NCBI RefSeq assembly: GCF_004103825.1
Contig: NZ_RYFI01000004.1
Coordinates: 1 to 57,318, forward strand
From: Hansschlegelia zhihuaiae
GTDB taxonomy: Bacteria > Pseudomonadota > Alphaproteobacteria > Rhizobiales > Methylopilaceae
DNA length: 57,318 nucleotides
Direction of reading: 5' to 3'
Shown: positions 34,842-49,430 of the stretch, in pieces
How the letters are laid out: every line of letters starts with the position of its first letter
How positions within the stretch are numbered: position 1 is the first letter of the stretch
Notes under the pieces: generated by a model
The model's database searches: none
The model's input: the letters and a program-made list of their open reading frames with translations, nothing else
What the model was told of the DNA's origin: nothing
Program-made: the position numbers and the translations under genes

Positions 34842-35441
34842 TCAGATCGCCCCAACCAGGATCGCGACCCCCGCGAGGCTCGCGGCTGCGCCGGCGAGAC
34901 GAGCGATCATCGGCCCTCTCGCCTCGCTGACGCGCCCGATCAGGAAGCCGACGCCGACGCCGACGGCGTGGAGGGCGGCGGTGGCCAGCAGGAAGCCCGC
35001 CGCATAGGCGGCGCCGTCCGCGGTCTCGGGCATTTCCGCGCCATGGGCGTGGCCATGAAAGACCGCGAACACGCCGACCAGCGCCGTCGCGACGGCGACC
35101 GGCGCCTTGACGCCGAACGCCACCGCCGCGCCCAGGGCCACGATCGACAGCGCGATGCCGGTCTCGACGAACGGCCCCTCGACGCCCGCGACGCCGAGCG
35201 CGCCGCCGAGCGCCATCACGAGCACGAAGGTCGCGGGCACGAGCCAGACCGCCCTCCCGCCGAGCCGCCAGGCGAAGAGGCCGACCATCACCATCGCGAG
35301 CACATGGTCGAGGCCGCCGATCGGATGACCGAAGCCGGCCGTGAAGCCGACCGCGTCGCCGTGGCCGACATGGGCGAAGGCCGCGCCCGGCAGGAGCGCG
35401 AAGGCGGCCGCAAGGGCGGGACGGAGAAGACGGAGCGTCAT
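34842..35441 (-). CDS. hupE: HupE/UreJ-family nickel permease
   Basis: A 199-residue membrane protein with a signal-like first helix ending FAHVGHGD, then six further helices. Family motifs HPIGGLDHVLAMVMVGLFAW (metal-binding His) and VFAVFHGHAHGAEMP are both present. It should import Ni2+, needed by urease and by nickel-dependent guanidine hydrolase. It is the third gene after the riboswitch-controlled hydrolase, 30 bp behind the His-rich gene. Confidence 0.9.
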   Translation of the reverse strand: MTLRLLRPALAAAFALLPGAAFAHVGHGDAVGFTAGFGHPIGGLDHVLAMVMVGLFAWRLGGRAVWLVPATFVLVMALGGALGVAGVEGPFVETGIALSIVALGAAVAFGVKAPVAVATALVGVFAVFHGHAHGAEMPETADGAAYAAGFLLATAALHAVGVGVGFLIGRVSEARGPMIARLAGAAASLAGVAILVGAI

Positions 35442-35471
35442 GGGGCGGTTCTCCCGGAATGCGGCGCGGCG

Positions 35472-36002
35472 TCAGCCGGCGGATGTCTCGAACGAGGCGG
35501 CGCCGGAGCGGTCGGCGAGCGCCCGGACGGCTGCGAAATCAAGGCGCTGCACGGCGTTTCCGTCGTGATACAGGAAGGAGAGGCGCCGCCGCCGCGAGGC
35601 CATCTTGGCGGGCAGCGGATCGTATCGCATCGCGCCGCCGCCGATCAGCGGCGCGACCGAGCCGACATCCACCATCGTCTCGGTCTCGACCCTCAGGAGA
35701 TGGAGCCGGCGGCCGTCCGGCGCCTCGCCCACGAAGGGCACGCCCGCGACGCGCAGGAAGCTCGTGACGTCGGTCGCCGTCGTGAACGCCTCCACGAAGG
35801 CCGCCTCGACCAGGTCGAGGTCGTGCTCGTGCGGCGCGTCGTCGGGATGCGCATGGTCGTGCGGCAGATGCGGCGTCTGCCACTGGACGGCCTTCGCGTG
35901 CGGCTGGTTGTGGCCGTGATGGTGATGATGGCCGGGATGGTGACCGTTCTTGGCGCGCGGACCGCCGCCGAACCCCTCGTCATGGTCGTGACCGAGATGC
36001 AT
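35472..36002 (-). CDS. histidine-rich protein, candidate nickel chaperone or store
   Basis: A 176-residue protein with 18 His in the first 60 residues, including a run of five (PGHHHHHGH) and many HxH/HD pairs, then an unfamiliar ~115-residue domain (LVEAAFVEAFTTATDVTSFL onward). It has no signal peptide, so it is cytoplasmic. It lies 23 bp after the guanidine hydrolase and 30 bp before hupE. By analogy with the His tails of UreE and HypB it may hold or deliver Ni2+, but it is not HypA, HypB or UreE. I do not recognise the C-terminal domain. Confidence 0.65.
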   Translation of the reverse strand: MHLGHDHDEGFGGGPRAKNGHHPGHHHHHGHNQPHAKAVQWQTPHLPHDHAHPDDAPHEHDLDLVEAAFVEAFTTATDVTSFLRVAGVPFVGEAPDGRRLHLLRVETETMVDVGSVAPLIGGGAMRYDPLPAKMASRRRRLSFLYHDGNAVQRLDFAAVRALADRSGAASFETSAG

Positions 36003-36025
36003 GGCCGAAGTCTCCCTTCAGGGCC

Positions 36026-37231
36026 TCAGTAGCTCACCGGCTTGTCGATGATGGACTTGTGCTTGCCGAGCGTGCCGTGCGCGACCATCGAGCCGAGCGC
36101 CTCGACGATGACTCGGACGCCGAACAGCGCGGTGATGTCGGAGGTGTCGTAGGGCGGCGAGACCTCCACGACCTCGAGGCCGCAGAGCCCCGGCGCGCAG
36201 ACCAGGCCGAGGATCTTCAGCGCCTCGCGCGGCAGGAAGCCGCCGGGCTCCGGCCAGCCGGTGCCCGGCACGAAGCCGCAGTCGATCGAATCCACGTCGA
36301 ACGAGATGTAGACCGCGTCGGTCCCCTCCCAGGCGAGGTCGAGCGCGATCTCGGCGGTCTTCTCCAGCCCGTATTTCTCGATGTCCTCGATGGTCAGCAC
36401 GTTTGTGTCGCGCCGGCGCGCCTCGGACACGCCGTAGCGCGGCACCTGCCAGCCGCCGATGCCGAGTTGCACGAGGTTCCTAGGGGACACGTTTGGCAGG
36501 TTCGTCGCCCAGAACCACGGCGTGGTGTGCATCCGCTCGTCCAGGTCCTTCTCCTGGATGTCGATGTGCCGGTCGAAATGGATGATGCCGATCTTCTTCG
36601 AGGTGCATTCCGCGATGCCGCGCACGCAGGGGAAGCCGATCGAATGGTCGCCGCCGATCATCACCGGCAGCGCGCCCGACGAGGCGACGTGCGCGACGCC
36701 GCGGGTGATCTGGTCGAAGCTCTTTTCGAGATTGGCCGGCAGGCAGAACACGTCGCCGGCGTCGCACAGCGTCATCTGCTCCCGCAGGTCCACGCCCATT
36801 TCGTAATTGTAGGGGGTGTAGAGCGCCGAGATGCGGCGCACGCCCTGCGGCCCGAAGCGCGTTCCGGGCCGGTAGGTTGTGCCGCTGTCGAACGGGATGC
36901 CGAGCACCGCGGCGTCGTACTTCCCGACGTCGCGCACGTTCTCGACATAGGGCGCCTTCATGAAGGTGTTGATGCCGGCGAAATGCGGAAGCTCGCCGCG
37001 CGCGAAGGTCGGGATCGTCTTGTCGGTGATGGAGTCGGCGCCGGGCAGGCCCATGTCGAGCGCCCATTGCTGCTCCTTCCGCCACATGGTCTCGGGCAGG
37101 CGGCCTTCGGCGTCGAGCGCCTTCCAGCCCTGCGTGTCCATCTTGGAGAAGTCGGGATGGTGGGCGCGCAGGCGCCCCTTCGACGGCGCGAGGCCTGCGG
37201 CGCGGCGGCGGCGGCGAGGCGAAAAGGTCAT
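36026..37231 (-). CDS. gdmH: ureohydrolase of the nickel-dependent guanidine hydrolase (GdmH) type
   Basis: A 401-residue protein of the arginase/agmatinase fold. Metal ligands are H196 (GGDHS), D220/H222/D224 (FDRHID) and D312/D314 (FDVDSID). It differs from agmatinase in DRHID for DAHxD, in the ~95-residue N-terminal extension, and in DERMHTTPWFWATN and LVQLGIGGWQVPR, which match the guanidine hydrolase group. The reaction is guanidine to urea and ammonia in the cytoplasm. A guanidine-I riboswitch directly upstream, HupE downstream and the urea/urease genes on the other side agree with it. The ATG at 37231 has GAGGAG upstream. Guanidinobutyrase-like activity is the alternative. Confidence 0.85.
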   Translation of the reverse strand: MTFSPRRRRRAAGLAPSKGRLRAHHPDFSKMDTQGWKALDAEGRLPETMWRKEQQWALDMGLPGADSITDKTIPTFARGELPHFAGINTFMKAPYVENVRDVGKYDAAVLGIPFDSGTTYRPGTRFGPQGVRRISALYTPYNYEMGVDLREQMTLCDAGDVFCLPANLEKSFDQITRGVAHVASSGALPVMIGGDHSIGFPCVRGIAECTSKKIGIIHFDRHIDIQEKDLDERMHTTPWFWATNLPNVSPRNLVQLGIGGWQVPRYGVSEARRRDTNVLTIEDIEKYGLEKTAEIALDLAWEGTDAVYISFDVDSIDCGFVPGTGWPEPGGFLPREALKILGLVCAPGLCGLEVVEVSPPYDTSDITALFGVRVIVEALGSMVAHGTLGKHKSIIDKPVSY

Positions 37232-37337
37232 TCGGCAGGCTCCTCGGGTCTCGTCCGTGCGCCCGAGATGGGCGGACGTTCGGTTTCGGGAGCTCGCCGC
37301 GCGCAAGGGAGGTCGGTCCGCGGCGGCGAACCCGTGC

Positions 37338-37446
37338 AGTGACCTCCCGGGATTTTGCCCCGCCGTGTCTCCCCGCCTGGCGAGCGGGGAGCGCGTCTCT
37401 CGGACCAGCGCCGGCTCTTGCGAACCGGCCGGAACCCTAGACGCGC
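37338..37446 (-). ncRNA. guanidine-I (ykkC) riboswitch
   Basis: Read on the minus strand from 37446, the leader shows the conserved ykkC blocks in order: CTAGGGTTCCG, CTGGTCCGAGAGAC, a variable GC hairpin (CTCCCCGC/GCGGGGAG), then ACACGGCGGG-CAAAA-TCCCGGGAG. Spacing and order match the guanidine-I class. It lies about 110 bases before the guanidine hydrolase ATG, so guanidine should switch on gdmH-His-rich-hupE. I did not resolve whether the expression platform acts on transcription or translation. Confidence 0.9.
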
Positions 37447-37570
37447 TGCACCGCGCCACCGCAGCAAGCGGCGAGGCCCGGGTCAAGCCCAAAGGTCGCG
37501 CGGCCAAGGAGACCCTTACAGGTAATTGGACACCTCATATCTGCTTAATTCGTCATCTCACGCCCAGATA

Positions 37571-37587
37571 TGCATAACATTTATGCA
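37571..37587. promoter_or_regulatory. candidate NtrC-type enhancer site upstream of urtA
   Basis: TGCATAA-CAT-TTATGCA is a perfect 17-bp interrupted palindrome of the form TGCA-N9-TGCA, as in NtrC sites. It lies 72 bp upstream of the -24 element of the sigma-54-type promoter at 37643. It might instead bind a GntR-family protein. Confidence 0.45.
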
Positions 37588-37642
37588 CCTGATCGATTGA
37601 TGACCGGCCCTCGAGGACTTGAAACGGCTCTGCCTCTCCAAG

Positions 37643-37657
37643 TGGCGCCGCGCTTGC
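37643..37657 (+). promoter_or_regulatory. sigma-54 (-24/-12) promoter of urtA
   Basis: TGGCGCCGCGCTTGC has GG and GC separated by exactly 10 bases, matching TGGCAC-N5-TTGC at all core positions. It ends 53 bp before the urtA ATG. With the TGCA-N9-TGCA palindrome upstream it points to nitrogen-limitation control of urea uptake. Confidence 0.6.
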
Positions 37658-37710
37658 CTGCTATCGCAGGATGGGCGCGACGGCGCCCCAATCCATCAGG
37701 GGAGATGGCA

Positions 37711-38997
37711 ATGAAAAAATTCTTCCGGGGCGCTCTGATCGCCGGCGCGTTCGCCGCCGCCGCGATCACGGCGGCGCCCGCCCGCGCCGAGGAGACCATC
37801 AAGATCGGCATCCTCCATTCGCTTTCCGGCACCATGGCGATCAGCGAGACCACGCTGAAGGACGCCATGCTCATGCTGATCGAGGAGCAGAACAAGAAGG
37901 GCGGCGTGCTGGGCAAGAAGCTCGAGCCGGTCGTGGTCGACCCGGCCTCCAACTGGCCCCTGTTCGCCGAGAAGGCCCGCGAGCTGATCTCGAACCAGAA
38001 GGTCGCAGTCGTGTTCGGCTGCTGGACCTCGGTCAGCCGCAAATCCGTCCTGCCGGTCTTCAAGGAGCTCGACAGCGTGCTGTTCTACCCGGTCCAGTAT
38101 GAGGGCGAGGAGAGCGAGCGGAACGTGTTCTACACCGGCGCCGCGCCCAACCAGCAGGCGATCCCGGCCGTCGACTACCTGATGAAGGAAGAGGGAGTGC
38201 AGCGCTGGGTGCTGGCCGGCACCGACTACGTTTATCCGCGCACCACCAACAAGATCCTCGAGGCCTATCTCAAAGACAAGGGCGTGGCGCAGGAGGACAT
38301 CCTGATCAACTACACGCCGTTCGGCCATTCCGACTGGCAGACGATCGTCTCCGACATCAAGAAGTTCGGCTCCACGGGCAAGAAGACCGCGGTGGTCTCG
38401 ACGATCAACGGCGACGCCAACGTGCCGTTCTACAAGGAGCTCGGCAACCAGGGCATCAAGGCGACCGACATCCCGGTGGTGGCGTTCTCGGTCGGCGAAG
38501 AGGAGCTCGCCGGCATCGACACCAAGCCGCTGGTCGGACACCTCGCGGCCTGGAACTACTTCCAGAGCGTCGACACGCCGGACAACAAGGCGTTCATCGA
38601 GAAGTGGCAGGCCTTCACCAAAAACCCGAAGCGCGTCACCAACGACCCGATGGAGGCCCACTACATCGGCTTCAACATGTGGGTGAAGGCCGCCGAGAAG
38701 GCCGGCTCCGTCGAGCCCGACAAGGTGATCGACGCGCTGCCCGGCATCGAGCAGGCGAACCTGACGGGCGGCGTCTCCAAGATGCTGCCGAACCACCACA
38801 TCACCAAGCCGGTGCTGATCGGCGAGATCAAGGACGACGGGCAGTTCGACGTCGTGGAGAAGACCGACGACCTGGTGCCCGGCGACGCCTGGTCGGACTT
38901 CCTGCCCGGCTCCAAGGACCTCGAGGCCGACTGGGTGGCCAAGAAGTGCGGCAACTTCAACACCAAGACAGGCAAGTGCGGCGGCCAGGGCAGCTGA
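37711..38997 (+). CDS. urtA: urea ABC transporter substrate-binding protein
   Basis: A 428-residue periplasmic receptor. Signal peptide MKKFFRGALIAGAFAAAA is cut near ARAEE. ETIKIGILHSLSGTMAISE, WTSVSRKSVLPVFKE and LFYPVQYEGEE are typical of UrtA (FmdD-like) rather than branched-chain amino acid receptors. I chose the second ATG (37711), which places GGGGAG about 6 bp upstream; ATG 37705 adds two residues. It is first in urtABC-DE. Urea is the expected ligand; short amides are the alternative. Confidence 0.93.
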   Translation: MKKFFRGALIAGAFAAAAITAAPARAEETIKIGILHSLSGTMAISETTLKDAMLMLIEEQNKKGGVLGKKLEPVVVDPASNWPLFAEKARELISNQKVAVVFGCWTSVSRKSVLPVFKELDSVLFYPVQYEGEESERNVFYTGAAPNQQAIPAVDYLMKEEGVQRWVLAGTDYVYPRTTNKILEAYLKDKGVAQEDILINYTPFGHSDWQTIVSDIKKFGSTGKKTAVVSTINGDANVPFYKELGNQGIKATDIPVVAFSVGEEELAGIDTKPLVGHLAAWNYFQSVDTPDNKAFIEKWQAFTKNPKRVTNDPMEAHYIGFNMWVKAAEKAGSVEPDKVIDALPGIEQANLTGGVSKMLPNHHITKPVLIGEIKDDGQFDVVEKTDDLVPGDAWSDFLPGSKDLEADWVAKKCGNFNTKTGKCGGQGS

Positions 38998-39060: not shown

Positions 39061-39141
39061 CGCCCAATGCGGCCAAGCCGCCGACAGACGCTCCGGCAGG
39101 CTGAGCCCCGCCGGTCCTCCGCGACACAACCTGGCCCACCC

Positions 39142-40767
39142 ATGCGATTGATCGGACTTCGCGGCGCGACGCTCGGGCTGCTCATCGCCATCGCGACGCT
39201 CCTCGGCGGGCCGGCGTCGCCGGCCTCGGCCGACCCCGTCGACGACGCGCTCGCCCGCTTCGCGGCGGACAAATATGACGAGACCGACAAGGCGATCGAA
39301 GGCCTGGTGGCCGCGAGCGCCCAGAACGGCCAGGCGATCTTCGAGGCGATGAGCGCCGGCCGACTGCTCTACGATCCGGAGAGCAAAACGGTCCTGATCA
39401 AGGACGCGGGCGGCGCGCTCGTGCTCGCCAAGACCGGCGACCCCGCGCCGCAGGCGCTCGCCGCCAAGCCTCTGAAAACGGTTCGCCTCAACAACCGCGT
39501 GCGGCGCTCTCTCGAGGCCGCCTCCGGCGCCTTCGCGCTGCAGGCCCCGGACCCGCAGAAGCGCATCGGCGCGGCGCGCGCGATCTTCAAGACCCGCGAG
39601 CCGACCGCGCTTCCGGCGATCGAGGCGGCGCTCGCCAAGGAGAAGGACGCAAGCGCCAAGCAGGCGCTCGAGGCCGCGAAAGCCGCCATCATCCTGGCCA
39701 GGCAGGACGCCCCCGAAGCCGACCGGATCGCGGCCGCCGACATCGTGGCGGCCGTAGGCGACCAGGACGCGCTCGCGGCGCTCCGCACGCTGCCGGCAAA
39801 TACGCCCCCCGCCGTCAAGCAGGCGGCCGAGGCCGGCGTCGCCTCGATCGAGCGCTGGCTCGGCGTCGCCAATGTCGTCCAGGACGTGACCTACGGCGTC
39901 TCGCTCGGCTCCGTGCTGCTGCTCGCCGCGATCGGGCTCGCCATCACGTTCGGCGTCATGGGCGTCATCAACATGGCGCATGGCGAGATGGTGATGATCG
40001 GCGCCTATGCGACCTTCCTGACGCAAGGGTTCATCCGAGACTACGTCCCGGCGCTCTCTGGCGCCTCGCTGATCCTCGCGATCCCGGTCGCCTTCCTGGT
40101 CGCGGGCGCGGTCGGGGTGCTGATCGAGCGCACGGTGATCCGCTTCCTCTATGGCCGCCCGCTCGAGACGCTGCTCGCGACCTGGGGCGTCAGCCTCATC
40201 CTGCAGCAGGCGGTGCGCTCGGTGTTCGGACCGACCAACCGCGAGGTCCAGACGCCCGAATGGCTGCAGGGCTCGGTGTCTTTCCTCGGCGTGTCGCTGA
40301 CCTGGAACCGCATCGCCATCGTGCTGTTCGCGATGGCCGTGTTCTTCGCGCTGATGCTGCTCCTGAAGCGCACCAGTCTCGGCCTCCGGGTCCGGGCGGT
40401 CACGCAGAACCGGCGCATGGCGGCCTCGATGGGCATCCGCACGCCCTGGGTCGACGCCATGACCTTCGGGCTCGGCTCCGGCGTCGCCGGCATCGCCGGC
40501 GTTGCGCTCAGCCAGATCGACAACGTCTCGCCCAATCTCGGGCAGAGCTACATCATCGACAGTTTCCTGGTCGTGGTGTTCGGCGGCGTCGGCAATCTCT
40601 GGGGCACGCTGGTCGGCGCGCTGTCGATCGGCGTCGCAAACAAGCTGCTCGAGCCGTTCGCGGGCGCGGTGCTCGGCAAGATCATCCTGCTGGTCGCCAT
40701 CATCCTGTTCATCCAGAAGAAGCCCCGCGGCCTGTTCGCGCTCAAGGGCCGGGCGGTGGAGGCGTGA
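39142..40767 (+). CDS. urtB: urea ABC transporter permease UrtB
   Basis: A 541-residue LivH-type permease with the long UrtB-specific N-terminal region. A signal sequence (ending PASPASAD) leads into ~220 periplasmic residues of helical repeats, then the ~290-residue membrane domain begins at YGVSLGSVLLLAAIGLAITF. GVINMAHGEMVMIGAYATF and GVGNLWGTLVGALSIG are the usual LivH motifs. It pairs with UrtC. The ATG at 39142 is chosen for the signal peptide; no strong RBS is visible. Confidence 0.93.
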   Translation: MRLIGLRGATLGLLIAIATLLGGPASPASADPVDDALARFAADKYDETDKAIEGLVAASAQNGQAIFEAMSAGRLLYDPESKTVLIKDAGGALVLAKTGDPAPQALAAKPLKTVRLNNRVRRSLEAASGAFALQAPDPQKRIGAARAIFKTREPTALPAIEAALAKEKDASAKQALEAAKAAIILARQDAPEADRIAAADIVAAVGDQDALAALRTLPANTPPAVKQAAEAGVASIERWLGVANVVQDVTYGVSLGSVLLLAAIGLAITFGVMGVINMAHGEMVMIGAYATFLTQGFIRDYVPALSGASLILAIPVAFLVAGAVGVLIERTVIRFLYGRPLETLLATWGVSLILQQAVRSVFGPTNREVQTPEWLQGSVSFLGVSLTWNRIAIVLFAMAVFFALMLLLKRTSLGLRVRAVTQNRRMAASMGIRTPWVDAMTFGLGSGVAGIAGVALSQIDNVSPNLGQSYIIDSFLVVVFGGVGNLWGTLVGALSIGVANKLLEPFAGAVLGKIILLVAIILFIQKKPRGLFALKGRAVEA

Positions 40768-40790
40768 GGCAGACCGAAGAGCGCAGACGC

Positions 40791-40920
40791 CATGTCCCGG
40801 CCTTGAGCCGGGACCCATTCGCGCATCGTGATGCAGGAAAGAACTGCGCGCCGCCTAGAGCGTCCTTCGACCTTGGCGGATATGGGTCCCGGCTCTCCGC
40901 TTCGCTGCGGCCGGGACATG
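40791..40920. repeat. long palindromic repeat (family D) between urtB and urtC
   Basis: Outer arms CATGTCCCGGCC/GGCCGGGACATG-like and inner arms CCGGGACCCAT/ATGGGTCCCGG make a ~130-bp imperfect palindrome inside the operon. It may modulate read-through. Confidence 0.75.
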
Positions 40921-40936
40921 GCGGGGAGCCTCGCCC

Positions 40937-42082
40937 ATGAGCCGCTACCGCTTCCTCGACGGCGCGGGGATGATCTTCCTCGCCGTCGTGCTCGCCATGG
41001 CGGCGCTGATCCCCGCCTCGAACCTGCTGCTGCCGCCGGACTCCTGGCTCCATGTGCCGGACCACATGGTGCCGCTGCTCGGCAAGTACCTCGCCTTCGC
41101 GATGCTCGCGCTCGCGCTCGACCTGGTGTGGGGCTATTGCGGGATCCTGTCGCTCGGCCATGGCGCGTTCTTCGCGCTCGGCGGCTACGCGATGGGCATG
41201 TACCTGATGCGCCAGATCGGGCCGCGCGGCGTCTACGGCAATCCGGTCCTGCCGGACTTCATGGTGTTCCTGAACTGGACCGAGCTGCCGTGGTTCTGGC
41301 TCGGCTTCGACCATTTCTGGTTCGCGCTCCTGATGGTCGTGCTCGTCCCCGGGGCGCTGGCCTTCTGCTTCGGCTGGCTCGCCTTCCGCTCGCGCGTCAC
41401 CGGCGTCTACCTCTCGATCATCACCCAGGCGCTGACCTTCGCGCTGATGCTCGCCTTCTTCCGCAACGACATGGGGTTCGGGGGCAACAACGGCCTCACC
41501 GACTTCAAGGACATCCTCGGCTTCCCCGTGCAGGCGCAGGGCACCCGCGCGGCGCTGTTCGCGCTCACCGCGTTCGCGCTCGCGGGCAGCTATCTGCTGT
41601 CGCGCTGGGTCGTGACCTCGAAGCTCGGCAAGGTCGTGGTCGCGATCCGCGACGCCGAGAGCCGCTCGCGCTTCATCGGCTACCGGGTCGAGCACTACAA
41701 GCTCGTGGTGTTCACGCTGTCGGCGATGCTCGCAGGGATCGCCGGGGCGCTCTACGTGCCGCAGGTCGGCATCATCAACCCGTCGGAATTCGCGCCCGCC
41801 AACTCGATCGAGGCGGTGATCTGGGTCGCGGTCGGCGGCCGCGGCACGCTGGTCGGCGCAGCGCTTGGCGCTTTCCTGGTCAACGCCGGCAAGACCTGGT
41901 TCACGGGCGTTCTGCCCTCGATGTGGCTGTTCGCGCTCGGCGGCCTGTTCGTGCTGACCACGCTGCTGCTGCCGAAGGGAGTGGTCGGGCTGATCACCGA
42001 CCTCTTCGGGATCAGGCGGAAGTCCGAGCTGCCGGCCCCGACGGCGCCGGCCGCGCCCGCCAAAGCTGCGCCTGCGGAGTGA
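40937..42082 (+). CDS. urtC: urea ABC transporter permease UrtC
   Basis: A 381-residue LivM-type permease. DLVWGYCGILSLGHGAFFALGGYAMGMYL is the LivM/UrtC signature region near residue 60, and GVYLSIITQALTFALMLAFFRNDMGFGGNNGLTDF is typical of UrtC. About ten helices are expected, ending in a short Pro/Ala-rich tail. GGGGAG precedes the ATG. It is 4 bp from urtD. Confidence 0.95.
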   Translation: MSRYRFLDGAGMIFLAVVLAMAALIPASNLLLPPDSWLHVPDHMVPLLGKYLAFAMLALALDLVWGYCGILSLGHGAFFALGGYAMGMYLMRQIGPRGVYGNPVLPDFMVFLNWTELPWFWLGFDHFWFALLMVVLVPGALAFCFGWLAFRSRVTGVYLSIITQALTFALMLAFFRNDMGFGGNNGLTDFKDILGFPVQAQGTRAALFALTAFALAGSYLLSRWVVTSKLGKVVVAIRDAESRSRFIGYRVEHYKLVVFTLSAMLAGIAGALYVPQVGIINPSEFAPANSIEAVIWVAVGGRGTLVGAALGAFLVNAGKTWFTGVLPSMWLFALGGLFVLTTLLLPKGVVGLITDLFGIRRKSELPAPTAPAAPAKAAPAE

Positions 42083-42086
42083 GTTG

Positions 42087-42845
42087 ATGGCGATCGGCGG
42101 ACTGACCACCAACGCGCTGCTCTATCTCGACAACGTCTCGGTGACGTTCGACGGCTTCCGGGCGCTGAACGCGCTGTCGCTGTCGATCGACGCGCAGGAG
42201 ATGCGCGCCATCATCGGCCCGAACGGCGCCGGCAAGACCACGATGATGGACGTGATCACCGGCAAGACGCGCCCCAACCAGGGCGTCGCGGTGTTCGAGG
42301 CGAGCCACGACCTGACCAAGCTCGACGAGGCCTCGATCGCCGAGCTCGGCATCGGCCGCAAGTTCCAGACCCCGACCGTGTTCGAGATGCACACCGTCGA
42401 GGACAACATCCTGCTCGCGCTGAAGACCGACCGCCGGCCTTTCCCCACACTGTTCTCGAAGCGCACCAAGGCCGAGAAGGAGCGCATCGACGCCCTGCTG
42501 GAGCGCGTGCGCCTCACCGGCAGCCGCGACCGCAAGGCGGGCGAACTCAGCCATGGCCAGAAGCAGTGGCTCGAGATCGGCATGCTGCTCGCCCAGGAGC
42601 CGAAGCTGCTGCTGGTCGACGAGCCGGCCGCCGGCATGACCGACCAGGAGACCGCCGACACCGCCGACCTCCTGCGCGAGATCGCCAAGACCGCCTCGGT
42701 CGTCGTGGTCGAGCACGACATGGTCTTCGTGCGGGATCTGGGCGTGAAGGTCACCTGTCTGCACGAGGGCTCGGTGCTGGCCGAAGGCTCGCTCGACGCG
42801 GTGTCGACCAATGAACGCGTCGTCGAAGTCTATCTGGGGCGGTGA
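42087..42845 (+). CDS. urtD: urea ABC transporter ATPase UrtD
   Basis: A 252-residue LivG-type ATPase. Walker A is GPNGAGKTT, the signature LSHGQKQWLEIGM, and Walker B LLLVDEPAAGM. The H-loop is VVVEHDMVFVRDLG. The ATG at 42087 is preceded by an in-frame TTG. It works with UrtE on the cytoplasmic face of UrtBC. Confidence 0.95.
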   Translation: MAIGGLTTNALLYLDNVSVTFDGFRALNALSLSIDAQEMRAIIGPNGAGKTTMMDVITGKTRPNQGVAVFEASHDLTKLDEASIAELGIGRKFQTPTVFEMHTVEDNILLALKTDRRPFPTLFSKRTKAEKERIDALLERVRLTGSRDRKAGELSHGQKQWLEIGMLLAQEPKLLLVDEPAAGMTDQETADTADLLREIAKTASVVVVEHDMVFVRDLGVKVTCLHEGSVLAEGSLDAVSTNERVVEVYLGR

Positions 42846-42867
42846 GGATGCGAGGCGGCGACCGAGT

Positions 42868-42986
42868 GCGTGCTTCGAGACGGCGCTGCGCGCCTCCTCA
42901 GCATGAGGAACGTTTGAGTTTCCTCGCTTCCTCAACGGTCCTCATGCTGAGGAGCGGCGGCGAAGCCGGCGCGTCTCGAAGCACGC
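42868..42986. repeat. long palindromic repeat (family A, copy 2)
   Basis: A 119-bp copy between urtD and urtE with the same outer (GCGTGCTTCGAGAC) and inner (CTCCTCAGCATGAGGA) arms as 30733-30847. It lies within the operon, so it must be transcribed and could fold into a long hairpin. Confidence 0.85.
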
Positions 42987-43014
42987 AGTCCGGCCGTGAG
43001 CGGAGGTCTCTCCC

Positions 43015-43710
43015 ATGCTGAGCGTCGAGGACGTCTCGCTCTATTACGGCTCGTCCCGCGCGCTGCGCGGGGTCTCGGTGACGGCCGCGGCCGGCGAGGT
43101 CACCTGCGTGCTCGGCCGCAACGGCGTCGGCAAGAGCTCGCTCTTGCGCGCCATCACCGGCCAGCGGCCGATCTCGGGCGGGCGCATCACGCTCGAGGGC
43201 AAGGAGATCGACGGCTTGAGGCCCTACGACCGCGCGGCGCTCGGCGTGGCCTATGTCCCGCAGGGCCGCGAGATCTTCCCGCTGCTCACCGTGAAGGAAA
43301 ATCTCGAAACCGGCTTCGCGCCGCTGAAGCGCAAGGACAGGTCGATCCCCGAGGACGTGTTTGACCTCTTCCCGGTGCTGAAGTCGATGCTCGGGCGGCG
43401 CGGCGGCGATCTTTCGGGCGGCCAGCAGCAGCAGCTCGCGATCGGTCGGGCGCTGGTCACGCGGCCGAAGCTGCTGGTGCTCGACGAGCCGACCGAGGGC
43501 ATCCAGCCGTCGATCATCAAGGACATCGGCCGCGCCATCCGCTACCTCAGGGACAAGGGCACCATGGCCATCGTGCTGGTCGAGCAGTATTTCGACTTCG
43601 CGCAGGAGCTCGCGGACCGGTTCATCGTCATGGAGCGAGGCGAGGTGGTCGAATCCGGCGACGCCAAGGCGCTCGAGGGGGACGATGTCCGTCAGCGCCT
43701 GCATTTCTGA
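43015..43710 (+). CDS. urtE: urea ABC transporter ATPase UrtE
   Basis: A 231-residue LivF-type ATPase. Walker A is GRNGVGKSS, the signature LSGGQQQQLAIGRAL, and Walker B LLVLDEPTEGIQP. GVAYVPQGREIFPLLTVKEN is the Q-loop region typical of UrtE. The C-terminus ends RLHF as is usual for UrtE. GGAGG is 8 bp before the ATG. Its last 26 bp overlap the ureD start. Confidence 0.95.
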   Translation: MLSVEDVSLYYGSSRALRGVSVTAAAGEVTCVLGRNGVGKSSLLRAITGQRPISGGRITLEGKEIDGLRPYDRAALGVAYVPQGREIFPLLTVKENLETGFAPLKRKDRSIPEDVFDLFPVLKSMLGRRGGDLSGGQQQQLAIGRALVTRPKLLVLDEPTEGIQPSIIKDIGRAIRYLRDKGTMAIVLVEQYFDFAQELADRFIVMERGEVVESGDAKALEGDDVRQRLHF

Positions 43711-44659
43711 ACCGATCGACGGAAAGGCGAGCGATCCTCGCCCGTCATGCCCGCGCGAAGCGCGGGTATCCACGACTTCGTCGACCCCGCCCGTGACAAC
43801 AAAAATCGTGGATACCCAGCCTTTGGCCGGGCATGACGGCGAGGATGCGGCGCCCGCCCTCCGCAGACAGCGCGCGGAGGGGCGGATCGCTCTGCGCGTC
43901 GAGGCCCGCGGCGGCCTGCCCCGCGTGACGCGCCTGGCCGAGAGCGGCTCGTCGCGGCTGCGATTCCCGAAGGCCGAGCACGGGCTAGACGGCGTGATGC
44001 TCAACATCGCGGGCGGCCTCGCCTGCGGCGACCGGATGTCCGTCGAGGCAGAGGTCGGGCCGGGCGCGGCGCTCGCGCTCTCCACCCCCGGCGCCGAGCG
44101 CGTCTACCGCTCCGACGGACCTGACACGCGGGTTTCCACCCGCCTCGCCGTCGAGGCCGGCGGCGCGGTCGTCTGGGCGCCGCAGGAGACTATTTTGTTC
44201 GACCGCGCCCGGCTCGCCCGCACGCTGGACGCCGAGGTCGCGCCGGACGCGGCCCTAACGGTCTATGAGGCGGTCGCCTTCGGCCGGCAGGCGCGCGGCG
44301 AGACCGTCGAACACGGGCTGATCGAGGACCGCTGGCGCGTCCGCCGTGGTGGTCGTCTGGTTTTTGCCGAGACGCTTCGGCTCTTCGGACCGATCCGGGA
44401 CCTGCTCGCCAAGGGAACCGTCGCGGGCGGCGCGACCTCTCTCGCCACCATCTTGCATGTCGCGCCGGACGCCGAGGCGCGGCTCGACGCGGTCCGCGAG
44501 GTTCTCGCGGGCCACGACGTCGAGGCCGGCGCCACGGCCTGGAACGGCGTTTTGGTCGTGCGTATGCTCGCCCGCCTGTCGGAGGCGCTGCGCGACGCCG
44601 CGCGCGCCGTGCTGCCGATCCTGATCGGCCGCCCCCTCCCCCGCGTCTGGACCTGCTGA
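43685..44659 (+). CDS. ureD: urease accessory protein UreD (UreH) with a repeat-derived N-terminal stretch
   Basis: A 324-residue urease maturation scaffold that acts with UreF and UreG on apo-urease. Conserved parts are [49 protein letters not shown] and FGRQARGE. From ATG 43685 the first ~60 residues run through a family B palindrome and are unlike any UreD. The homologous part begins near [19 protein letters not shown] at 43808 is a possible later start but has no RBS. It ends in a TGATG overlap with ureAB. Confidence 0.88.
43742..43839. repeat. long palindromic repeat (family B, copy 2) inside the 5' end of ureD
   Basis: Outer arms CCGTCATGCCCG/CGGGCATGACGG and inner arms GTATCCACGA/TCGTGGATAC match the copy at 14087. 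Here the element lies in the open frame of ureD, so it is either translated or marks a displaced start. Confidence 0.85.
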
Positions 44660-45279
44660 TGAACCTCACGCCTCGCGAAAAGGACAAGCTGCTGATCGCG
44701 ATGGCCGCGATCGTCGCGAGGAGCCGCCTCGCCCGCGGGGTGAAGCTCAACCATCCAGAGGCGATCGCGCTGATCACCGATTTCGTGGTCGAGGGCGCGC
44801 GAGACGGACGGACAGTGGCGGAGCTGATGGAGGCGGGCGCGGGCGTTCTCGCCGCCGACCAGGTGATGGACGGAGTCCCGGAGATGATCCACGACATCCA
44901 GGTCGAGGCGACGTTCCCGGACGGCACCAAGCTCGTCACGGTGCATCACCCGATCCGCGGCGAGGCCTCGTCGGTCGCGGCCGGCGAGGTCGTCACGCCG
45001 CCAGGCGACATCGAACTCAACGCCGGCGCCGAGACCGTCACAGTCACGGTCGCCAACACCGGCGACCGGCCGATCCAGGTCGGCAGCCACTACCATTTCT
45101 TCGAGACCAACCCGGCGCTGGAGTTCGACCGCGCGGCCGTCCGCGGCATGCGGCTCGACATCGCCTCCGGCACCGCCGTGCGCTTCGAGCCGGGCCAGAC
45201 CCGCACTGTGACGCTCGTGCCGTTCTCGGGCACGCGGAAGGTGTTCGGCTTCCGCCAGGACGTGATGGGCGAGCTATAG
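44659..45279 (+). CDS. ureAB: urease gamma-beta fusion subunit
   Basis: A 206-residue fusion. Residues 1-100 are UreA ([38 protein letters not shown]). Residues ~105-206 are UreB ([45 protein letters not shown]). The single-chain form is known in Helicobacter and some alphaproteobacteria, where separate ureA and ureB are the more common state. It forms the cytoplasmic trimer with UreC. The start overlaps ureD, and a foreign-looking gene separates it from ureC. Confidence 0.95.
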
Positions 45280-45295
45280 CTTCAACGAGGCTCCG

Positions 45296-45826
45296 ATGGA
45301 GTTTGGCGACGGAATTTCCATCGTAGCGCTCATTGTTTCGTTGGTTGCAGCCTGGTTCGCGTGGCATCAACAGCAGGCGTCGTTCCGTCTAGCGTGGTAT
45401 GAGCAAGTCGTTACTTGGGCACGTGAATGCGTCCGTACATTCTCCGGAGCGCATGAGTTGCTGTCCATAACCGCCAGCGACGCAGAGGAGGTGAACAAGC
45501 GCAAATTGATACTGATGGAGTCTTTTAGTAGCCTTATAGATGAAGGTAGATTTATCTTCGAAAATGACAAGACGGCAGAATTAGGCGCATCAAAACCATA
45601 CGCCTACATAGGCATACGCCCAGACGTTCTAGACTACTTGGTAGGCGCATATATTTCTCTCAAGGAATTTGATGCACAGAATGTTATAGATCGGGAAAGA
45701 ACACGTAATTATATTATCGATCTCAAACGCCACTTTGTATCAGATGTCGTTCAAGTAATAGAGCCAAACTGGTTCTCACGTCGGGCAAAGACTACACCAA
45801 AGAACTCAAAAATCACGCGAATCTAA
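45296..45826 (+). CDS. AT-rich unknown membrane-anchored protein inserted in the urease operon
   Basis: A 176-residue protein. One N-terminal helix (ISIVALIVSLVAAWFAW) is followed by a soluble helical domain (WARECVRTFSGAHELLS, RKLILMESFSSLIDEGRFIF). GAGG precedes the ATG. It starts 16 bp after ureAB and ends 9 bp before ureC, and its tail supplies the ureC RBS. Codon use (AATGTTATA, TTAGTAGCC, TATATT) and GC content are far below the neighbours, a clear sign of transfer. It is not a known urease protein. No function can be assigned. Confidence 0.75.
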   Translation: MEFGDGISIVALIVSLVAAWFAWHQQQASFRLAWYEQVVTWARECVRTFSGAHELLSITASDAEEVNKRKLILMESFSSLIDEGRFIFENDKTAELGASKPYAYIGIRPDVLDYLVGAYISLKEFDAQNVIDRERTRNYIIDLKRHFVSDVVQVIEPNWFSRRAKTTPKNSKITRI

Positions 45827-45835
45827 GGTAAAACC

Positions 45836-47548
45836 ATGCCCGCCAGGATCTCCCGCGCCGCCTATGCGGACATGTTCGGGCCGACGACCGGAGACCGCAT
45901 CCGGCTCGCCGACACGACGCTGATCATCGAGGTCGAGCGGGACTTCACCATTTATGGTGAGGAGGTGAAGTTCGGCGGCGGCAAGACGATCCGCGACGGC
46001 ATGGGGCAGAGCCAGCACACGCGAGCGCAAGGGGCGGTCGACACGGTCATCACCAACGCCGTGGTGCTCGACCATTCCGGCGTCTTCAAATGCGACATCG
46101 GCATTTTGGGCGGCCATATCGTCAAGCTCGGCAAGGCCGGCAATCCGGACGTCCAGCCCGGCGTCGACATCGTGGTCGGGCCCGGCACCGAGGTGATCGC
46201 CGGCGAAGGCAAGATCGTCACGGCCGGCGGCTTCGACAGCCACATCCACTTCATCTGCCCGCAGCAGATCGAGGAGGCGCTGAACTCCGGCGTCACCTCC
46301 ATGCTCGGCGGCGGCACGGGGCCTGCGACCGGCACCAACGCCACCACCTGCACGCCCGGCCCCTGGCACCTCGCCCGGATGATCGAGGCCGCCGACGCCT
46401 TCCCGATGAATCTGGGCTTCGCGGGCAAGGGCAACGCCTCGCTACCGGCAGGGCTCGAGGAGCAGGTCCGCGGCGGCGCCTGCGCATTAAAACTTCACGA
46501 GGACTGGGGCACGACGCCGGCCGCGATCGACTGCTGCCTTTCGGTCGCGGACGCGCTCGACGTCCAGGTGATGATCCACTCGGACACGCTGAACGAGAGC
46601 GGCTTCGTCGAGGACACGATCGCGGCCTTCAAGGACCGCACGATCCACGCCTTCCACACCGAGGGCGCCGGCGGCGGCCACGCGCCCGACATCATGAAGG
46701 TGGCGGGGCTCGCCAACGTGCTGCCCTCCTCCACCAACCCGACGCGGCCCTATACGCGCAACACCATCGACGAGCATCTCGACATGCTGATGGTGTGCCA
46801 CCACCTCGACCCGTCGATTCCCGAGGACCTCGCTTTCGCGGAGAGCCGCATCCGCAAGGAGACGATCGCGGCCGAGGACATCCTGCACGATCTCGGCGCG
46901 CTCTCGATGATGTCCTCCGACAGCCAGGCGATGGGCCGCGTCGGCGAGGTGATCATCCGCACCTGGCAGACCGCCGACAAGATGAAGCGGCAGCGCGGCG
47001 CGCTGCCGGGCGAGACCGGCGACAACGACAATCTCCGCGCCCGCCGCTACGTCGCGAAATACACCATCAACCCGGCGATCGCGCACGGCGTGTCGCGGCA
47101 TGTCGGCTCGGTGGAGGCCGGCAAGCTCGCGGACCTCGTGGTCTGGACGCCGGCCTTCTTCGGCGTGAAGCCCGATCTCGTCATCAAGGGCGGCGTGATC
47201 GCCGCGGCCCCGATGGGCGACCCCAACGCCTCGATCCCGACGCCGCAGCCGGCGCATTATCGGCCGATGTTCGCGGCCTTCGGCGCTGGGCCGATCGCGA
47301 CCTCGCTGACTTTCGTGTCGAAGGCCGCGCTCGAGGACGGGCTGCCCGACAAGGTGCTGGCGCGGAAGCCGATGGTCGCGGTCGAGAACGTCCGCGGAGG
47401 CATCTCCAAGAAATCCATGGTGCTGAACGACGCGACGCCCGTCATCGAGATCGACGCCGAGACCTACGACGTGCGGGCCGACGGGGAGCTTCTGGTCTGC
47501 GAACCGGCCGAGGTGCTGCCGATGGCGCAGCGGTATTTTCTGTTCTGA
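45836..47548 (+). CDS. ureC: urease alpha (catalytic) subunit
   Basis: A 570-residue enzyme that hydrolyses urea to ammonia and carbamate at a dinickel centre. [11 protein letters not shown] gives the first His pair, [11 protein letters not shown] the carbamylated Lys, [12 protein letters not shown] further His ligands, and [20 protein letters not shown] the mobile flap Cys-His. The length is normal. It begins [20 protein letters not shown]. It is out of its usual tight coupling with ureAB because of the inserted gene. Confidence 0.98.
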
Positions 47549-47564
47549 AGGTTGGGGCAAGGCT

Positions 47565-47681
47565 GCGTGCTTCGAGACGCGCCTTCGGCGCTCCTCAGCA
47601 TGAGGAGGACTTGCGCCTGCCATCCTCCACGTTCCTCATGCTGAGGAGCTTCGGCGCGAGCCGAAGCGTCTCGAAGCACGC
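47565..47681. repeat. long palindromic repeat (family A, copy 3) between ureC and ureE
   Basis: A 117-bp palindrome with arms GCGTGCTTCGAGACGC and GCTCCTCAGCATGAGGA, as in the two other copies. It fills almost all of the ureC-ureE gap. Confidence 0.85.
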
Positions 47682-47699
47682 GAATCGCGTCCGCCAGCC

Positions 47700-48146
47700 A
47701 TGACCCGTGCCACCAACGTCGTCCGCCGCCCCGCCGTGAAGCCCGCCGCTGTCGCCGACCGCATCACGCTCGACCACGAGGCGCGCGGGGGCCGGCGGCT
47801 CGCCATGACGGCGGATGGCGGCCTCGCCTTCCTGCTCGACCTGCCCCGCCCCATGGGCCTCAACGACGGCGACGCGCTGGCGCTCGAAGACGGGCGATTG
47901 ATCGAGGTGCGGGCGGCCGAGGAGGAGCTGATCGAGATCACCGCCGCGACGCCGCTGCGGCTCGCCAAGATCGCCTGGCACCTCGGCAACCGCCACACGC
48001 CGGCCGAGGTGACCGGAGACGCGATCTATGTCGCGCCCGACCATGTGCTGGTCGAGATGGTGCGGGGCCTGGGGGGCGCCTCACGGCCCGTCAGGCGCCC
48101 GTTCCGGCCCGAGCAGGGCGCCTATCACGGCCACGACCATGGGTGA
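47700..48146 (+). CDS. ureE: urease accessory nickel metallochaperone UreE
   Basis: A 148-residue protein. The N-terminal peptide-binding half ends near [20 protein letters not shown]. The metal-binding half has LAWHLGNRH-like [15 protein letters not shown] and the conserved [12 protein letters not shown]. The C-terminus carries a short His tail, YHGHDHG. It delivers Ni2+ to the UreDFG complex. Its last 8 bp overlap ureF. Confidence 0.95.
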
Positions 48147-48813
48147 CGCCGTCACCCTCCTCGCATGGCTGTCGCCCGCCTTCCCGGTCGGCGGCTACGC
48201 CTACAGCCACGGGCTCGAACAGGCGGTCGAGGACGGCGAGGTCTCGGACGAGGCCTCGCTCGAGGCGTGGCTCCGCGACGCGCTCGCGCTCGGCTTCGGC
48301 AGGAACGACGCGATCCTGCTGCAGGCGGCGCATCGCGCAGCGGCCGCCGGCGACGCCGCGGCTCTCGCGGAGGTCAACGACCTCGCGCTCGCCTTCGCGC
48401 CGACCAAGGAGCTGCATCTCGAGACCAGCCAGCAGGGCCGCAGCTTCCTGGACGCCGTCCGCGCCGCCTGGCCGAACGAGCGGGTCAACGGCGTAGCAAT
48501 GGCGCTGCCCGGCGCGGTCGCCTATCCGGTCGCGGTCGGGGCCGCGGCGGCCGCGCATGGGATCGACGCGCGCGAGACGGCGGCCGCCTTCCTCGTCGCC
48601 GTCGCGCAGGCGCTGGTCTCGGCCGCGGTCCGGCTCGCCCCGATCGGCCAGACGGCCGGCGCGCGGATCGTCGCGCGGCTCGCTCCCCTCGCCCGATCTC
48701 TCCCCGACGAGGCGTCGGCGCTGTCCATCGACGATCTCGCCAACGCGACCTTCAGGCTCGATCTCGGCTCCGCCCGCCACGAGACCCAGTACACGAGGCT
48801 TTTCCGCTCATGA
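48139..48813 (+). CDS. ureF: urease accessory protein UreF
   Basis: A 224-residue all-helical protein. [22 protein letters not shown] is the UreF signature, and [16 protein letters not shown] and [13 protein letters not shown] follow. I chose the ATG at 48139; the longer open frame is a shadow of ureE. It forms the UreD-UreF-UreG maturation complex in the cytoplasm and overlaps both neighbours. Confidence 0.95.
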
Positions 48814-49430
48814 GCTCTTCGAACGGTCCCTTGCGCGTCGGCGTCGGCGGCCCCGTCGGCTCCGGCAAGACGGCGCTGATGGAGGCGCTCTGCCGGCGCT
48901 TCCGCGAGACCTACGAGATCTGCGCCATCACCAACGACATCTACACCAAGGAGGACGCCCGCATCCTGGTCGAGGCCGGCGCGCTGCCGGAGGAGCGCAT
49001 CATGGGGGTGGAGACCGGCGGCTGCCCGCACACCGCGGTCCGCGAGGACGCCTCCATCAACCTCGCGGCGGTGGCGGAGATGTCGGCGCGCTTCCCCGGC
49101 CTCGACCTGATCCTGATCGAGAGCGGCGGCGACAACCTCGCCGCGACCTTCTCGCCGGAGCTCGCCGACGTGACCGTCTACGTCATCGACGTCGCGGGCG
49201 GCGAGAAGATTCCGCGCAAGGGCGGGCCCGGCATCACCCGCTCCGACATGCTGGTGGTGAACAAGACCGACCTCGCGCCGATGGTCGGCGCGGATTTGTC
49301 GGTGATGGAGGCCGACACGATCCGCATGCGCAAGGGCGGGGCTTACGTATTCGCCAGCGTCCGCAACGGCGAGGGCGTCGACGAGGTCGCGCGCTTCATT
49401 GAGCGCGCCGGCGGTCTCGGCCGGGGCTAG
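48810..49430 (+). CDS. ureG: urease accessory GTPase UreG
   Basis: A 206-residue SIMIBI GTPase. The P-loop is [28 protein letters not shown] is the CPH metal-binding motif, [16 protein letters not shown] the switch region, and NKTDL the base-recognition motif. GTP hydrolysis drives nickel insertion. ATGA overlap with ureF. Last gene of the urease operon. Confidence 0.98.

What the first reader, a model, noticed from the sequence alone, without database searches (positions are those of the whole stretch)
34842..37446. Guanidine-I riboswitch in front of a guanidine-hydrolase-type gene with its own nickel genes
The leader on the minus strand carries the ykkC consensus blocks (CTAGGGTTCCG, CTGGTCCGAGAGAC, ACACGG, CCCGGGAG). 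The first gene has ureohydrolase metal ligands with the DRHID and IGGWQVPR features of nickel guanidine hydrolases, then a His-rich protein and HupE. Sequence and established riboswitch biology agree, so the gene is very unlikely to be a normal agmatinase.
Basis: partly seen in the sequence, partly recalled or inferred. Interest (0 to 1): 0.75.

Follow-up and report, generated by a model that had tools for sequence, protein, structure and literature searches.

The report
Guanidine-sensing nickel guanidinase operon
A bacterium related to Methylopila carries an RNA switch that should turn on a nickel enzyme breaking guanidine into urea, together with a previously unnamed histidine-rich helper protein that may replace the usual nickel-loading proteins.

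Summary
Confirmed. Rfam Guanidine-I matches 37451-37342(-) at 83.4 bits (cut-off 63, E 2e-13), the only one in the genome. The gene behind it (37231-36026) is closest in the PDB to two solved guanidinases (7esr/7oi1, 9fek), far above guanidinobutyrase. It has the published diagnostic T/H/W residues and six metal ligands and misses the NCBI agmatinase cut-offs. Urea importer and urease genes lie divergently beside it. All this is a new member of a known kind.

The 176-aa His-rich gene goes further. Its family has no convincing Pfam, NCBIfam, PDB or fold match. In three genome samples, all 34 genomes with a W-type guanidinase carry it next to gdmH; the two relatives lacking the Trp do not. In 79 of 80 named loci it follows gdmH. 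HypA and HypB, the known loaders, are absent from this genome and most tested. I infer a guanidinase-dedicated nickel accessory protein; untested. The importer genes that relatives carry here are deleted.

The parts
37342..37451 (-). Guanidine-I (ykkC) riboswitch aptamer
   Evidence: RF00442, 83.4 bits, cut-off 63, E 2e-13; only one in the genome
37307..37348 (-). Possible expression platform: 37348-37341 (end of aptamer) can pair with 37314-37307, without a U-tract; inferred
   Evidence: 8-bp stem, loop 26, shuffle p 0.033 in the window, but p above 0.05 in several relatives; stem of 7 bp or more in 41 of 52 unique leaders, with varied pairs. Unconstrained fold of the window segment does not show it as minimum-energy state and is no more stable than shuffles, z -0.58
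37250..37282 (-). Junction where relatives carry about 3.1 kb of ABC importer genes
   Evidence: blastn: 37451-37283 matches L077 before the importer gene, 37249-37100 matches L077, L080, L081 before gdmH; no close binding-protein match in this genome, present at this place in 18 of 20 relatives tested
36026..37231 (-). gdmH: nickel guanidine hydrolase (guanidinase), 401 aa
   Evidence: PDB 7esr/7oi1 E 6.1e-162, 9fek E 4e-155; T119/H235/W326 and six metal ligands
35472..36002 (-). His-rich protein, 176 aa: low-confidence His-rich N-terminus with GHN motif plus about 105-residue folded core; nickel accessory role inferred
   Evidence: 20 His; no convincing Pfam/NCBIfam/PDB match in 47 members; AF2 core pLDDT 90-96; follows gdmH in 79 of 80 named loci
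34842..35441 (-). HupE/UreJ-family membrane protein, likely Ni2+ uptake
   Evidence: PF04955, E 1.1e-54
37570..38997 (+). urtA urea ABC transporter binding protein (divergent; likely true start 37711, my choice)
   Evidence: TIGR03407 563.3 bits, cut-off 492.75
39067..43710 (+). urtB, urtC, urtD, urtE
   Evidence: TIGR03409, TIGR03408, TIGR03411, TIGR03410 above cut-off
43685..49430 (+). ureD, ureAB fusion, unknown ORF, ureC, ureE, ureF, and a CobW/HypB/UreG-family gene read as ureG: urease for the urea product

Best explanation
This is a guanidine-inducible nickel guanidinase operon. Guanidine binds the Guanidine-I aptamer in the leader; this stabilises the aptamer's last helix and stops its 3' strand from joining a downstream hairpin that blocks expression, so gdmH, the His-rich gene and hupE are made (switching inferred from the family). 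HupE takes up Ni2+ (inferred from family). The His-rich protein binds Ni2+ with its flexible N-terminal histidines and, through its conserved core, hands it to GdmH without HypA/HypB (inferred from association, composition and the lack of those chaperones). Ni-GdmH hydrolyses guanidine to urea and ammonium (inferred from similarity and diagnostic residues). The neighbouring urease completes nitrogen release, and UrtABCDE takes up urea (inferred from families). In this lineage the riboswitch-linked ABC importer was deleted, joining the switch directly to gdmH (shown by comparison of one draft genome with relatives). The confidence given is for the riboswitch plus guanidinase reading; for the His-rich protein as a nickel accessory protein (delivery or buffering) I give 0.65.
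For: RF00442 hit. Closest PDB relatives are the two solved guanidinases (named so in PMC11410670, passage); T119/H235/W326 match that paper's criteria. His-rich family: order sample 23 of 199, gdmH-like 23 of 199, 22 shared; class 12, 12 and 11 of 337; phylum 5, 5 and 5 of 319. Counted once, 36 genomes have a gdmH-like gene; the 34 with Trp have the partner within 221 bases of the gdmH match, and the 2 with Ser or Thr do not have it (in one of the 34, L024, position 119 lies beyond the contig end). Named loci: 132 relatives found, 80 kept, 79 of these with gdmH directly upstream on the same strand, at most 405 bases between matched parts. HypB above cut-off in 6 of 34 and HypA in 8 of 34 gdmH-like genomes tested, in none near gdmH by coordinates; neither in this genome. 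GdmH activation by GhaAB is stated in a passage of PMC11271267, activation of MefH/DmgH by HypA/HypB in one of PMC11399263. Guanidine-I model matches in 68 of the 80 loci, two cut by a contig end.
Against: No binding, expression or enzyme data. Metal binding by the His-rich protein rests on composition; it could be storage, or bind another metal. Comammox guanidinase is active although no loader was found in that genome (PMC11410670, passages), so a dedicated loader may not be needed. HupE is in only 35 of 80 named loci, so nickel uptake is not a fixed part. One locus (L124, Jiella endophytica) has the His-rich gene without gdmH in its 12.4 kb; G322 has a His-family fragment with a stop and no gdmH. 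The tool reports a stop in the matched His-rich stretch of G077, though a 171-aa frame is read there. Five named loci with over 4.5 kb upstream of gdmH have no riboswitch match.
Confidence: 0.9

Rival explanations
1. The His-rich protein is a nickel store or buffer (like Hpn-type proteins) that protects the cell or holds Ni for several enzymes; GdmH is loaded by the urease chaperones UreE/UreG, or takes nickel by itself.
For: His-rich tails are known in storage proteins (recalled); ureE, ureF and a UreG-family gene lie beside the operon; 32 of 34 gdmH-like genomes have sub-cut-off TIGR00073 hits at E 1e-17 or better, which I read as UreG without testing each. Comammox guanidinase has no known loader (PMC11410670, passages).
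Against: The His-rich gene tracks gdmH; a store for urease should also occur in urease genomes without gdmH, but I did not count urease genomes. A conserved 105-residue core with invariant residues suggests a specific partner. G031 (a MAG) has the gdmH/His-rich pair but no UreG-grade hit.
Confidence: 0.25
2. The enzyme's main substrate is another guanidino compound (agmatine, guanidinobutyrate, methylguanidine), and free guanidine is only a signal or side substrate.
For: Ureohydrolase names are often wrong in both directions; the measured Km of the comammox enzyme for guanidine is 13.6 mM, and its authors raise this alternative (PMC11410670, passage).
Against: T119/H235/W326 all present; best matches are guanidinases by hundreds of bits; the riboswitch is reported as highly specific, and no urea came from several other guanidino compounds with the comammox enzyme (PMC11410670, passage).
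Confidence: 0.06
3. The His-rich protein is a structural or regulatory subunit of GdmH rather than a metal carrier.
For: Near-fixed gene pairing; metformin hydrolase has a second subunit needed for activity (PMC11399263, passages).
Against: The N. inopinata guanidinase is a homohexamer resembling that of Synechocystis (PMC11410670, passage); the protein is no ureohydrolase; the His tail varies strongly in length and sequence.
Confidence: 0.08

Closest known systems
Synechocystis GdmH (Sll1077) guanidinase operon with GhaA/GhaB and ABC importer
   Same: Guanidine-I riboswitch, Ni guanidinase with the same diagnostic residues; relatives of the window also have an NMT1-type ABC importer in the operon
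   Different: No hypA/hypB in the operon or, in this genome; instead a His-rich protein without a P-loop; importer deleted in the window; HupE added
Nitrospira inopinata guanidinase (9fek)
   Same: Guanidine-I control, guanidinase, no nickel chaperone found in that genome
   Different: APC permease in the operon; no His-rich partner or HupE is mentioned in the passages I read
Metformin/dimethylguanidine hydrolase operons (MefH, DmgH; MetAB-CaCb)
   Same: Ni ureohydrolase with hupE downstream; [quoted passage not shown]
   Different: Heteromeric enzyme with hypA and hypB in the operon; no guanidine-I riboswitch is mentioned in the passages read
HypB / UreE / Hpn-type His-rich nickel proteins
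   Same: His-rich stretch likely to bind Ni2+
   Different: No GTPase domain, no UreE or HypB match; a core unmatched in PDB. Hpn is recalled, not compared

Membership tests
Guanidine-I riboswitch (RF00442) | Covariance-model score over the gathering cut-off, full length | tested here: met
   83.4 vs 63 bits, model 1-107
Guanidine-I riboswitch (RF00442) | Binds guanidine and changes expression | not testable with these tools
   needs in-line probing or a reporter
Guanidinase (GdmH) | Thr, His and Trp at N. inopinata positions 105, 222, 313 (PMC11410670) | tested here: met
   T119, H235, W326; positions mapped through (chain numbering offset of 2 inferred), residues read
Guanidinase (GdmH) | Dinuclear ureohydrolase metal ligands | tested here: met
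   H196, D220, H222, D224, D312, D314; ligand set recalled for the superfamily
Guanidinase (GdmH) | Ni2+-dependent hydrolysis of guanidine | not testable with these tools
   enzyme assay needed
Agmatinase (TIGR01230, NF002564) | Score over the curated cut-off | tested here: not met
   158.7 of 174.3 and 201.2 of 302 bits
HypA/HypB-type nickel chaperones | HypA or HypB domain, P-loop GTPase | tested here: not met
   no Pfam or NCBIfam match to HypA or HypB in 47 members at E 0.1; a P-loop-like string in 1 of 47 full sequences and 0 of 47 cores
Nickel metallochaperone (functional class) | Binds Ni2+ and activates a client enzyme | not testable with these tools
   association and composition only
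HupE/UreJ | PF04955 over its cut-off | tested here: met
   185.1 vs 23 bits

The most novel reading that the evidence does not exclude
The His-rich protein founds a new family of nickel metallochaperones dedicated to guanidinase in Alphaproteobacteria. It loads GdmH without GTP hydrolysis and replaces HypA/HypB (GhaA/GhaB); it arose with, and is kept only by, enzymes that have the guanidine-specifying Trp.
Probability: 0.45. Interest if true: 0.7.

Novelty: new variant of a known kind. Interest (0 to 1): 0.55.

Why it matters
Riboswitch-controlled guanidinase is known biology, and this is a well-supported case in Alphaproteobacteria, next to the urea importer and urease that finish the pathway. 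The new part is how the enzyme may get its nickel. Published Synechocystis guanidinase and metformin hydrolases are linked to HypA/HypB-type chaperones, and for comammox guanidinase the loading route is called unclear (PMC11410670, passage). Here an unnamed protein family, tied almost one to one to W-type guanidinase, is the obvious candidate and can be tested by co-expression with gdmH.

Tried and rejected
Agmatinase reading: rejected cut-offs and residues. His-rich gene as a HypB remnant: rejected, no GTPase domain. Chance neighbourhood of the His-rich gene: rejected. Intrinsic terminator as switch: an alternative stem exists in 41 of 52 unique leaders, but a U-tract in only 2 of the 41; the window's unconstrained fold prefers another hairpin, and in several leaders the stem is not unusual against shuffles (L077 p 0.157), so the read-out is left open. 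Viral relatives of gdmH: none confirmed. Fold matches: none with E 0.001 or better for the full model in PDB or for the core in PDB and viral models. PDB profile search: one chance-level hit, E 0.55. Weak library hits of the family: single members to four Pfam families (best E 0.014), three members to DmeF (best E 0.0054) and one to ZrgA, which I put down to histidine stretches. Hits against the pairing: G141 (E 5.6e-4, with a stop; I judge it unrelated), G322 (fragment), L124 (no gdmH). HupE as a fixed partner: rejected, 35 of 80; 39 loci lack it although over 2 kb from the His-rich match onward were held. One search was of little use: two of its L124 frames were not genes. Literature: searches listed no paper that I recognise as describing this protein; the founding GdmH paper (Funck 2022) and Nelson 2017 are not held and could mention it. 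Papers were read as passages only.

Full report
Observation. It is the only such match in the 4.6 Mb genome. Three genes follow on the same strand with short gaps: gdmH 37231-36026, a His-rich gene 36002-35472, and a HupE gene 35441-34842 (the gdmH start is my choice within a longer open frame). HupE is clear by Pfam (E 1.1e-54).

Enzyme. The first gene is a ureohydrolase (PF00491). Its best PDB relatives are 7esr/7oi1 (542 bits) and 9fek (520 bits); guanidinobutyrase follows at 173 bits. The PDB titles call the first two probable or putative agmatinase 2; PMC11410670 names them as the Synechocystis and N. inopinata guanidinases (passage). The gene misses the NCBI cut-offs for agmatinase. PMC11410670 (passage) requires Thr, His and Trp at three sites for a guanidinase; all three are present (T119, H235, W326), as are the six metal ligands. 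Hydrolysis of guanidine is therefore very likely, though not shown here.

Neighbours. On the other strand lie urtA (37570, divergent), urtB-E, and the urease set ureD, ureAB fusion, ureC, ureE, ureF and a UreG-family gene. The urea product has its urease next door. The organism is in the same genus as G170, whose gdmH contig has the length of a Methylopila sp. Yamaguchi contig (144129 bases); the name is inferred from that.

The His-rich gene. Over 47 members only scattered weak hits appear in Pfam and NCBIfam (best E 0.014 and 0.0054), and the profile finds no solved structure (one hit at E 0.55). The family has a variable N-terminus (5 to 27 His, median 13, before the core), an invariant GHN motif (47 of 47), and a core with few His (median 2) and at most one Cys. 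AlphaFold2 gives a confident core (block means 90-96 for residues 71-160 in the full model, mean 89 for the core alone) and a low-confidence tail. Foldseek finds nothing at E 0.001 in PDB or in viral models. No library of predicted cellular structures was at hand.

Association. In the order sample 23 of 199 genomes have a gdmH-like gene (E 1e-100 or better) and 23 a His-rich match (E 0.001); 22 share both. In the class sample (gdmH E 1e-90, His profile) the numbers are 12, 12 and 11 of 337; in the phylum sample 5, 5 and 5 of 319. The samples overlap; counted once, 36 genomes have a gdmH-like gene. The 34 with Trp at position 326 have the His-rich gene within 221 bases of the gdmH match, by the coordinates of these calls. 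The other two, G140 and G276 (53-55% identical), have Ser or Thr there and no His-rich match; they also carry a His-rich stretch inside the enzyme. More distant enzymes under the E limits would not be counted. The genome-contig scan found 132 relatives and kept 80; of these 79 have gdmH directly upstream on the same strand. The exception is L124, where no gdmH is found in 12.4 kb. The titles of the 80, where they name a class or lower group, are Alphaproteobacteria as I know them; L125 is titled only Pseudomonadota. The other 52 relatives were not seen.

No HypA/HypB. In 34 of the 36 gdmH-like genomes (32 of them W-type), HypB passes its cut-off in 6 and HypA in 8; this genome has neither. None of the passing hits lies near gdmH: in G010 and G058 they are 256 kb and 3.2 Mb away on the same contig, in the others on other contigs. 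Passages of two papers say that GdmH activation needs GhaAB and that metformin hydrolase depends on HypA/HypB-type chaperones when recombinant (PMC11399263) or in vivo (PMC11271267); the latter found them without effect in cell extracts. So another loader, or none, must serve here; the His-rich protein is the natural candidate. UreE/UreG remain a rival: sub-cut-off hits that I read as UreG occur in 32 of 34 genomes. G031, a MAG, has the gdmH/His-rich pair without such a hit, without a riboswitch match and without the importer's binding protein.

Riboswitch across the family and importer loss. A model from 15 aptamers (window included) finds the riboswitch in 68 of 80 named loci, two of them cut by a contig end. 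Of the 12 misses, 6 have under 2.5 kb upstream of gdmH, 5 have over 4.5 kb and still none, and 1 is L124. In a Methylopila relative a substrate-binding protein, permease and ATPase (NMT1, BPD_transp_1, ABC_tran) lie between switch and gdmH. The binding protein is found in 19 of 20 further gdmH genomes tested, in 18 of them close to gdmH by coordinates. Here the leader matches relatives' pre-importer leader down to 37283 and their pre-gdmH stretch from 37249, and the best match to the binding protein in this genome is only 36% identical and on another contig. The importer cassette, about 3.1 kb, was lost, as far as one draft assembly can show. G077 has the same direct layout, its binding-protein relative (51%) on another contig. 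How guanidine enters is unknown; UrtABCDE is a guess only.

Read-out. The aptamer's 3' end can pair with a downstream stretch (37348-37341 with 37314-37307). A stem of at least 7 bp with a 24-35 base loop is in 41 of 52 unique leaders, with differing base pairs (A-U or G-C at the same step), but only 2 of the 41 have a U-tract. The window's stem has shuffle p 0.033; several relatives' stems have p above 0.05. A plain fold of the window prefers another hairpin and is no more stable than shuffles (z -0.58). I infer a switch between aptamer helix and this stem, possibly with Rho; this is not settled.

Verdict. The finding is real and correctly read. By itself it is a new member of a known kind. 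The near-fixed His-rich partner, in a genome without HypA/HypB, makes it a new variant, with a clear experiment to decide it.

Noticed in passing
window 45990-46275 (-): Rfam 5_ureB_sRNA (RF02514, 91.6 bits) is called antisense inside ureC; probably reflects conserved coding sequence, though an antisense RNA is not excluded.
   Followed up: no
window 45296-45826 (+): A 176-aa ORF without Pfam or NCBIfam match sits between the ureAB fusion and ureC; by eye it has an N-terminal membrane segment.
   Followed up: partly
G034, G111, G193 (same genus); L052, L066, L068: Three same-genus genomes have Guanidine-I matches (3, 1, 2) but no gdmH. By eye two lead into the same NMT1-like importer and one into genes resembling the carboxyguanidine deiminase route, so the genus seems to mix both guanidine pathways.
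   Followed up: partly
L023, L179: Gdm-like enzymes with Ser/Thr instead of the guanidine Trp carry a His-rich insertion in the protein itself and lack the His-rich partner; perhaps a built-in version of the same metal function.
   Followed up: partly
L124 5944-6408: Jiella endophytica has the His-rich gene apart from gdmH; by eye the gene directly upstream resembles an NAD-dependent epimerase and one further upstream a formate-dehydrogenase-type oxidoreductase.
   Followed up: partly
window 44659-45279 (+): Urease gamma and beta subunits are fused in one ORF.
   Followed up: no
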